Source of the DNA: Aggregatibacter aphrophilus ATCC 33389
Lineage (GTDB): Bacteria > Pseudomonadota > Gammaproteobacteria > Enterobacterales > Pasteurellaceae
Assembly (NCBI RefSeq): GCF_900636915.1
Contig: NZ_LR134327.1
Coordinates: 930,001-994,000, forward strand
Direction: 5' to 3'
Length of the DNA stretch: 64,000 nucleotides
Each line of letters starts with the position of its first letter. Position 1 is the stretch's first letter. The notes below the pieces were generated by a model. That model was given only the letters and a program-made list of their open reading frames with translations. It was not told where the DNA came from and made no database searches. Both the position numbers and the translations under genes were made by a program. Shown in pieces: positions 49,888-52,018 of this stretch.

Positions 49888-51627
49888 CTACGCAGTCTCT
49901 TTTTTCTCTAAGATTTTGCTAAACCGATAACGACGGTCGAACATACACAATAAACCACCCAGCGCCATAAACAGACCACCCAGCCAAATCCAACGGATAA
50001 ACGGTTTGTAATATAAGCGTAACGCCCAAGCATTGTTATCTAATTTTTCACCTAGGGCGACATATAAATCACGGGTAAAGCCCCAATCAATGGCCGCTTC
50101 GGTCATCGGCATTTTACTAACGGTATAAAGACGTTTCTCGGCAAACAACGTTGCTTCCGGTTTACCATGACGGGTAATATCAATTTGCGCTTTACCGCCG
50201 ATATAGTTAGGCCCGTTAGCATCGCTAATGCCCTTGAACGTGAAATCATAATCGGCAATTTGCACCGAATCCCCCACATTCATTCGTACATCACGTTCAA
50301 CGCTGTAATTTTGGCTAAAGGCAATGCCCCAAACTGTCATAGCAACACCCAAATGCGCCAAGACCATGCCCCAGTGGGAGCGGGACAATTTCGTGATACC
50401 TTGTAAGAAACTGTCGCGGTGCGTTGCTCGTTGGTGCATTTCATAAAGACTAAGCAATACAATAATTACTGTCATCATGGTACCTAATACCGCGCTGACA
50501 GTAATCTTGTCTTGTAATAAATACGGCAAAGCAAAGCCTGCAATTAACATGATAATGACACTCACCACAACCGGAGTGCGAATAGCAGAGAACTGATCAC
50601 GGCGCCATTTCACTAATGGCCCAATTCCCAATAACAAGGCAAACGGCGTCATAATAATCAGGAACATTTGATCAAAGAACGGCGCACCAATAGAAATTGA
50701 CCCTAACCCCAATTGCTTATGCACAAGCGGCAACAATGTGCCGAGCAAAACCACACAAAGTGCGGTCATTAATAAAATATTATTTAGCAACAATAGGCTT
50801 TCGCGGGAATAACGTTCCGCATTATCGCGTGAACGAATTTGACTGCCTTTGTAAGCATATAAAGTTAGTGAGCCACCAATCACCACGATTAAGTAGGCTA
50901 AGACATATAAGCCGCGGGTTGGATCGGAAGCAAACGCGTGCACGGAAACCAAAATCCCCGAACGCACCAAAAAGGTACCGAGCAAACACAAGGAAAAAGC
51001 CAAGATAGCGAGAAGCACCGTCCAAGCTTTAAAGGATCCGCGTTTTTCCGTTACAGCCAAAGAATGCAATAATGCGGTTCCCGCTAACCACGGCATGAAA
51101 GAGGCATTTTCTACCGGATCCCAGAACCACCAGCCGCCCCAGCCTAATTCGTAATATGCCCACCAAGACCCCAAAACGATACCTAAGGTGAGGAAGATCC
51201 ACGCAGCCATCGTCCAAGGGCGAGACCAACGCGCCCAAGCAGTATCTAACTTACCGGTCATTAAAGAGGCGATGGAAAAAGCAAACGCTACGGAAAAACC
51301 TACATACCCCATATATAACAACGGCGGGTGGAAAATTAAGCCGACATCTTGCAATAACGGATTCAGTTCTTTGCCATCCACCGGAAAATCAGGGAAAGTA
51401 CGGGCAAACGGATTCGAAGTAAATAAGACGAAAAGCAGGAAACCGATGCTGATAATGCCCATGATGCCCAGTACACGGGCGGCAGCTTCTTGCGGTAAAC
51501 GCTTACTGAATAATGCAACTGCCGCGCCCCACAACGAAAGCAACCAAATCCATAACAGCAAAGAGCCTTCGTGAGAACCCCAAACTGCGGATAAGCGGTA
51601 ATAAATCGGGTACATAGTTTTCATCAT
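49888..51627 (-). CDS. ccmF: Haem lyase CcmF, N-terminally truncated by a deletion
   Basis: 579 residues where the family has about 650. The protein begins MMKTMYPIYYRLSAVWGSHEGS. Recognisable CcmF sequence starts at the segment that is residue ~79 of E. coli CcmF (LPVWYRVAATWGAHEGS), so the first two membrane helices are missing. The rest is intact, including WGGWWFWDPVENASFMPW and the C-terminal domain. The first four or five codons are out-of-frame ccmE sequence (the HDENY codons read in another frame). A deletion joining ccmE to ccmF explains this. No ribosome-binding site adapted to this start is evident. Activity is doubtful; the complete NrfE at 39929 might substitute. Confidence 0.85.
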   Translation of the reverse strand: MMKTMYPIYYRLSAVWGSHEGSLLLWIWLLSLWGAAVALFSKRLPQEAAARVLGIMGIISIGFLLFVLFTSNPFARTFPDFPVDGKELNPLLQDVGLIFHPPLLYMGYVGFSVAFAFSIASLMTGKLDTAWARWSRPWTMAAWIFLTLGIVLGSWWAYYELGWGGWWFWDPVENASFMPWLAGTALLHSLAVTEKRGSFKAWTVLLAILAFSLCLLGTFLVRSGILVSVHAFASDPTRGLYVLAYLIVVIGGSLTLYAYKGSQIRSRDNAERYSRESLLLLNNILLMTALCVVLLGTLLPLVHKQLGLGSISIGAPFFDQMFLIIMTPFALLLGIGPLVKWRRDQFSAIRTPVVVSVIIMLIAGFALPYLLQDKITVSAVLGTMMTVIIVLLSLYEMHQRATHRDSFLQGITKLSRSHWGMVLAHLGVAMTVWGIAFSQNYSVERDVRMNVGDSVQIADYDFTFKGISDANGPNYIGGKAQIDITRHGKPEATLFAEKRLYTVSKMPMTEAAIDWGFTRDLYVALGEKLDNNAWALRLYYKPFIRWIWLGGLFMALGGLLCMFDRRYRFSKILEKKETA

Positions 51628-52018
51628 GTTTTGCCAACACTTCGGTGGCTTCCAATAATGTCGGTTCTTTTAACACGCCTTGTGCCACAATGCCTTGTCC
51701 TTCGCGGAATAGATCCGGCAAGATGCCTTCATATTCAACACTGATAGACGGACCGATATCATTTAAATCAAACCGCACTTTCAAACTTTTCGGATCGCGT
51801 TGTACCGTACCGGCCACCACCATGCCGCCGACACGAATACGCTGGCCCACTTCCGGTTTTAAATCAGCTTTATCCTCTTTGCCGTAAACCACTTCTGATG
51901 GGGTATAAAATAAATCGATATTTTGGCGCAACGCATATAATACCAATGTTGTTGCAATCACCACGCCTGCCAATACTAAAATAATAATAGATAAACGGGA
52001 TTTACGTCTTGGATTCAT
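51503..52018 (-). CDS. ccmE: Haem chaperone CcmE with a deleted and replaced C-terminus
   Basis: 171 residues, of which only the first 137 are CcmE. The membrane anchor (about 9-29), the OB-fold core and the haem-binding His131 with Tyr135 (VLAKHDENYVP) are present. After Pro137 the frame runs into ccmF in the wrong register, adding 34 unrelated residues ending GRGSCIIQ. The missing part is the flexible tail, which in E. coli is less important than the histidine, so partial function is possible. ATG 52018 overlaps the ccmD stop. See ccmF for the other side of the junction. Confidence 0.85.
   Translation of the reverse strand: MNPRRKSRLSIIILVLAGVVIATTLVLYALRQNIDLFYTPSEVVYGKEDKADLKPEVGQRIRVGGMVVAGTVQRDPKSLKVRFDLNDIGPSISVEYEGILPDLFREGQGIVAQGVLKEPTLLEATEVLAKHDENYVPDLLPLIRSLGFSRRLFAVMDLVAFVVGRGSCIIQ

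What the first reader, a model, noticed from the sequence alone, without database searches (positions are those of the whole stretch)
51600..51650. Deletion fusing ccmE out of frame to a 5'-truncated ccmF
Seen: the minus-strand sequence passes from the CcmE haem-histidine segment (HDENYVP) straight into the codons for YPIYYRLSAVWGSHEGS of CcmF, in a different frame. CcmE loses its tail after residue 137 and gains 34 foreign residues; CcmF lacks about 75-80 N-terminal residues (two membrane helices). Known: intact operons have a full CcmE stop and CcmF start here. Inference: roughly 300 bases were lost, perhaps through short shared CCG/ACC bases. The general haem lyase would be damaged while NrfE, its homologue in the same window, is complete. 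If viable, this isolate may depend on Nrf proteins or have lost most c-type cytochromes.
Basis: partly seen in the sequence, partly recalled or inferred. Interest (0 to 1): 0.75.

Follow-up and report, generated by a model that had tools for sequence, protein, structure and literature searches.

The report
Small deletion breaking two cytochrome-maturation genes
One sequenced strain of an oral bacterium (genus Aggregatibacter) has lost a short piece of DNA that breaks two genes needed to attach haem to cytochromes, probably a recent accident that cripples part of its anaerobic respiration; it is a real-looking but ordinary mutation.

Summary
On the minus strand, ccmE codon 137 runs into ccmF codon 80, in another frame, at window 51609/51608. 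Against seven of eight congeners 346 bp are missing (343 against the eighth). The segment is absent from the strain's single-contig genome and present in all eight congeners. CcmE keeps its haem histidine and tyrosine but swaps its tail for 34 foreign residues. CcmF loses 79 residues: two hydrophobic segments, seven positions at least 99% conserved in 107-108 homologues, and its own start. The 109 other CcmF loci tested are open for at least 60 codons upstream. In the sister species the breakpoints lie in an imperfect 21-24 bp direct repeat; none of 840 positions pairs better, so replication slippage is the likely origin. The rest of the ccm operon and the seven c-type cytochrome genes examined are intact, and the remaining CcmF shows no decay. 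So the deletion is probably very recent, strain-specific or culture-derived. NrfE is intact, but nothing I saw shows that it can replace CcmF. Most likely a recent loss-of-function mutation. Reads and other isolates could not be checked.

The parts
51608..51609 (-). deletion junction (346 bp absent relative to 7 of 8 congeners; one C, at 51609, is shared by both sides)
51503..52018 (-). ccmE, broken: 137 native residues (haem His131 and Tyr135 kept) plus 34 out-of-frame residues
49888..51627 (-). ccmF, 5'-truncated open frame of 579 aa starting inside ccmE; residues 1-79 of the 652-aa protein lost; WWD motif and four histidine-bearing motifs kept
49311..49856 (-). ccmG/dsbE, intact
48826..49362 (-). 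ccmH, intact
47909..48829 (-). ccmI, intact
52237..52977 (-). ccmC, intact
52988..53668 (-). ccmB, intact
53658..54293 (-). ccmA, intact
39929..41839 (-). nrfE, complete CcmF paralogue (636 aa)
38360..39409 (-). NrfF-NrfG-like fused protein (349 aa; CcmH-family match in its N-terminal part; the NrfG name is from position and recall)
44769..46301 (-). nrfA, intact: one CXXCK and four CXXCH motifs
44040..44696 (-). nrfB, intact: five CXXCH motifs

Best explanation
A recent 346-bp deletion, made by slipped mispairing between two imperfect direct repeats of about 21-24 bp (one in the haem-histidine segment of ccmE, one about 80 codons into ccmF), fused ccmE out of frame to a 5'-truncated ccmF in one Aggregatibacter strain. 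Shown: the junction, its size, the loss of the ccmF start and of two hydrophobic segments, and that the segment is nowhere else in the assembled genome. Inferred: CcmF is made poorly or not at all and cannot work as a haem lyase, CcmE is impaired, so attachment of haem to CXXCH cytochromes (Nap, Nrf, Tor-type, peroxidase) fails or is severely reduced. Inferred: the event is recent, in this strain or its cultured stock, and is tolerated because growth with oxygen or by fermentation does not need these cytochromes.
For: All 8 congeners carry the segment and the window's genome does not. In 109 of 109 other CcmF loci the frame is open at least 60 codons further upstream. The lost part holds residues at least 99% conserved in 107-108 homologues: E4, G6, G27, L57, D65, F66, L79. 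The normal ccmF start, overlapping the ccmE stop with a purine-rich stretch before it (seen in G003), is gone; by eye the ATGs inside ccmE have no comparable stretch before them (sequence printed). No second ccmE, no ccmF besides nrfE, no ResB/System II. The breakpoint flanks align better than chance: none of 840 partner positions of the left end scores higher. Recent age: ccmF 3' part 24 synonymous against 5 nonsynonymous differences, and the ccmE 5' part, ccmB and ccmC no amino-acid difference from G003; in the retained CcmF only T651, in a variable tail, is unique to this strain within the genus. In Shewanella, deleting ccmF severely impairs haem c (PMC3769277 passages) and such cells are said to make no cytochrome c (PMC5603553 passages).
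Against: No functional data. The WWD motif, the histidine-bearing motifs of CcmF and the haem-binding His/Tyr of CcmE survive, so residual activity is possible. Undecayed ccm and client genes fit kept function or an assembly error as well as a recent loss. The reads were not available, so the deletion rests on one assembly. At fixed 346-bp spacing 0.7% of 3360 background pairs score as well as the breakpoints, and the strictly shared sequence is one base.
Confidence: 0.74

Rival explanations
1. Assembly or consensus error: the strain has intact ccmE and ccmF and 346 bp were dropped in the assembly.
For: Only one genome of the species is held and no reads are held. Client genes and the rest of ccm are undecayed, as expected if nothing is broken.
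Against: Single contig, completeness 100. The repeat at the ends is short and imperfect, not something that normally collapses in assembly (general knowledge). The nrf and ccm genes have the same lengths as in G003 apart from start choice, so no sign of a poor assembly there.
Confidence: 0.13
2. The truncated proteins still work well enough: CcmF starts at an ATG inside ccmE and its core folds without its first two helices, and CcmE does not need its tail.
For: The 579-aa frame is open and scores 960 bits against TIGR00353. WWD and four histidine-bearing motifs are kept. The stable haem of CcmF sits on TM7 and TM14 (PMC10663686 passages). E. [quoted passage not shown]
Against: Near-invariant residues are lost. 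The ccmF start and ccmE-ccmF coupling are lost. The new CcmE tail is partly hydrophobic. An extra alanine near the CcmE histidine abolishes haem attachment (PMC3601427 passage). 109 of 109 other loci keep an open N-terminal part.
Confidence: 0.1
3. An established, tolerated loss in the lineage, with NrfE and its partners taking over general haem attachment.
For: NrfE, the DsbE-like protein and the fused NrfFG-like protein are complete, with dN/dS 0.05-0.09 against G003.
Against: In E. coli NrfEFG serve the CXXCK site; the Shewanella paralogue does not cover loss of CcmF. No sign of age: no decay in the remaining ccm genes.
Confidence: 0.03

Closest known systems
System I cytochrome c maturation (ccmABCDEFGHI) of gammaproteobacteria
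   Same: Gene order A-B-C-(D)-E-F-G-H-I and family matches for A, B, C, E, F, G and I; the ccmH frame matches the related NrfF model and the CcmH Pfam family. CcmB, CcmC and the CcmE 5' part are identical in protein to sister G003.
   Different: The ccmE 3' end and ccmF 5' end are missing here.
Experimental ccmF deletion mutants of Shewanella oneidensis (PMC3769277, PMC5603553; passages seen)
   Same: Loss of CcmF with a CcmF paralogue still present elsewhere in the genome.
   Different: Those are engineered null mutants with a measured phenotype; here a natural or culture-derived partial deletion without phenotype data.
Split CcmF of plant mitochondria (three polypeptides; PMC3601427 passage)
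   Same: CcmF not encoded as one intact chain.
   Different: In plants CcmF is made up of three separate chains; here the lost segment is nowhere in the assembled genome (positive controls).

Membership tests
CcmF (TIGR00353, PF01578) | WWD haem-handling motif and conserved ligand histidines | tested here: met
   WGGWWFWD at 163; motifs HPPLLY, LLHS, SVHAFA and LAHLG at 100, 186, 228, 423 of the truncated frame; that these hold the four ligand histidines is recalled
CcmF (TIGR00353, PF01578) | full-length membrane protein with its N-terminal helices | tested here: not met
   residues 1-79 of 652 absent
CcmE (PF03100) | haem-binding histidine followed by tyrosine (HxxxY) | tested here: met
   HDENY retained; H and Y in 101 of the 101 CcmE found in 108 loci (7 loci gave none), the search pattern allowing H/C and Y/F
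CcmE (PF03100) | native C-terminal tail | tested here: not met
   second proline onward replaced by 34 foreign residues
Deletion between short direct repeats | matching sequence at both ends in an undeleted relative, one copy left | tested here: met
   imperfect 21-24 bp repeat (3 mismatches, 3 gap columns), mosaic single copy at the junction, no higher score among 840 positions; the strain's own ancestor is not available
Functional c-type cytochrome maturation | holo-cytochrome c made | not testable with these tools
   needs haem stain or spectra

The most novel reading that the evidence does not exclude
The strain still matures c-type cytochromes. Either the core of CcmF works without its first two helices, or a +1 slip at the CCC-G formed by the junction yields a CcmE-CcmF fusion. 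By a positive-inside reading done by eye, the CcmE tail and CcmF residue 80 would both lie in the periplasm, so such a haem chaperone-lyase fusion would be topologically coherent.
Probability: 0.06. Interest if true: 0.6.

Novelty: new member of a known kind. Interest (0 to 1): 0.2.

Why it matters
If real, the strain is a natural ccmEF mutant whose client cytochrome genes, as far as examined, are still intact. That makes it a ready subject for asking whether NrfE can act alone and whether the CcmF N-terminal helices are needed. It also warns that this genome, held here as the one genome of its species, may mislead predictions of nitrate, nitrite and peroxide metabolism for the species. As a mutation it is ordinary.

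Tried and rejected
Second intact copy: rejected. The lost segment is absent from the genome, with eight positive controls. Only ccmC, ccmF, nrfE and a 264-aa protein beside an ffh-like gene carry the Cytochrom_C_asm domain in G000 (the ffh likeness is by eye). System II: no ResB. Decay of the pathway: not seen in the genes examined. Insertion at the site: none, the two sides abut directly. Species-wide fixation: could not be tested. Literature searches for a natural ccmF deletion and for ccmF pseudogenes in Pasteurellaceae gave nothing to the point in the listings and in the passages that I looked at (listings; passages of PMC5603553 and PMC2175527); I read no paper whole. The searches on Aggregatibacter cytochromes and phenotype were seen as listings only and not used. 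Passages of PMC10457321 and PMC3884852 added nothing decisive. A first tally of CcmE tails used too narrow a pattern, found 60 loci and forced the residue after Tyr; it is discarded, which found CcmE in 101 of 108 loci.

Full report
What is there. On the minus strand of the window the ccm operon runs A-B-C-(D)-E-F-G-H-I from 54293 down to 47909. ccmD is a short frame between ccmC and ccmE that I recognised by eye and did not test. At 51609/51608 ccmE codon 137 abuts ccmF codon 80 in the +1 frame. The closest relative, G003, has a 172-aa CcmE whose stop overlaps the start of a 652-aa CcmF; the window's genome has a 171-aa CcmE with 34 foreign residues and a 579-aa CcmF frame that opens inside ccmE.

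Size and uniqueness. Aligning both sides to eight congeners gives 346 missing bases in seven and 343 in one (G005); each leaves a frame remainder of one. The 346-bp segment of G003 is found in 8 of 9 genomes of the genus and not in the window's own single-contig 2.34-Mb genome. Of 109 loci tested (29 from the 36 family relatives, 80 from named genomes; L007 and L032 appear to be the same contig), 109 keep at least 60 open codons upstream of the retained CcmF part.

How it arose. In G003 the two breakpoint flanks align over 21-24 bases with three mismatches and three gap columns. None of 840 partner positions 60-900 bp from the left end scores higher (the true end and its neighbours are among the 840), and 0.7% of 3360 background pairs at the same spacing do as well. 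The junction is a mosaic of the two copies with one strictly shared base. Slipped mispairing between imperfect direct repeats is the simplest origin. The strain's own undeleted ancestor is not available, so this is inferred.

What is lost. CcmF loses residues 1-79: two hydrophobic segments (1-30 and 42-66) and seven positions conserved at 99% or more (E4, G6, G27, L57, D65, F66, L79) in 107-108 other CcmF sequences; over the whole lost part mean conservation is 0.60 against 0.68 for the kept part, so it is not more conserved than the rest. The kept part retains the WWD motif and four histidine-bearing motifs. The solved Thermus CcmF 6zmq aligns from query residue 3, so the lost part is an ordinary piece of the fold. 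CcmE keeps HDENYVP. His and Tyr are invariant in the 101 CcmE found in 108 loci; the second proline onward is replaced. The normal ccmF start is gone with the segment, and by eye the ATGs inside ccmE lack a clear ribosome site.

Consequence. Reviews state that NrfEFG are required for the CXXCK site and that Ccm proteins load the four CXXCH sites of NrfA without them (PMC12285233, PMC3601427, passages). In Shewanella loss of CcmF is not covered by its paralogue (PMC3769277 passages; PMC6976685 passages), and a ccmF mutant is said to make no cytochrome c (PMC5603553 passages); the Shewanella paralogue is not NrfE itself, so this is an analogy. The expected result is failure or strong reduction of CXXCH cytochromes. 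Seven intact client genes were examined here: NrfA (4 CXXCH and 1 CXXCK), NrfB (5), NapB (2), NapC (4), two pentahaem NapC/TorC-type proteins (5 each) and a tri-haem peroxidase (3). Names are by family match, operon position or motif count; the list need not be complete.

Age. Compared with G003, the kept ccmF has 24 synonymous and 5 nonsynonymous differences, and the ccmE 5' part, ccmB and ccmC have no amino-acid difference. Of the four CcmF residues that differ, two are changes on the G003 side, one (G107) is shared with two other congeners, and only T651 is unique to this strain within the genus. So nothing points to relaxed selection, which fits a very recent event, a culture-derived event, an assembly error, or kept function. 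I rank them in that order by the facts above.

Limits. No reads, no other isolates (the protein collection was off) and no phenotype. My verdict is an ordinary, probably recent loss-of-function deletion.

Noticed in passing
window 47909-54293 versus 38360-46301: The ccm genes are 96.2-98.5% identical to sister genome G003 (dS 0.06-0.17), whereas the nrf genes are 87-93% (dS 0.26-0.68) and the nap region 93.4%. This suggests recent recombination of the ccm block between species. A recalled 10-base uptake-signal core occurs 7 times in the ccm block, 9 times in the nrf stretch and 42 times in the window, so it is not enriched there.
   Followed up: partly
window 38360-39409: NrfF- and NrfG-like parts appear as one fused protein (349 aa), beside a DsbE-like protein (39406-39939).
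   Followed up: no
L146 2387-6033 (G000 about 1688386-1692032): A pentahaem NapC/TorC-type cytochrome (391 aa) with an 819-aa reductase-like protein, a third Cytochrom_NNT gene in this genome where G003 has two.
   Followed up: no
G003:C1:1756565-1757089: A second MauG/peroxidase-type protein occurs in G003 and several congeners but gave no match in the window's genome.
   Followed up: no
window 47070-47687 and 46766-47056: Two small genes, not identified here, lie between the nrf and ccm operons; their proteins are 88% (all 205 aa) and 79% (84 of 96 aa) identical to G003.
   Followed up: no
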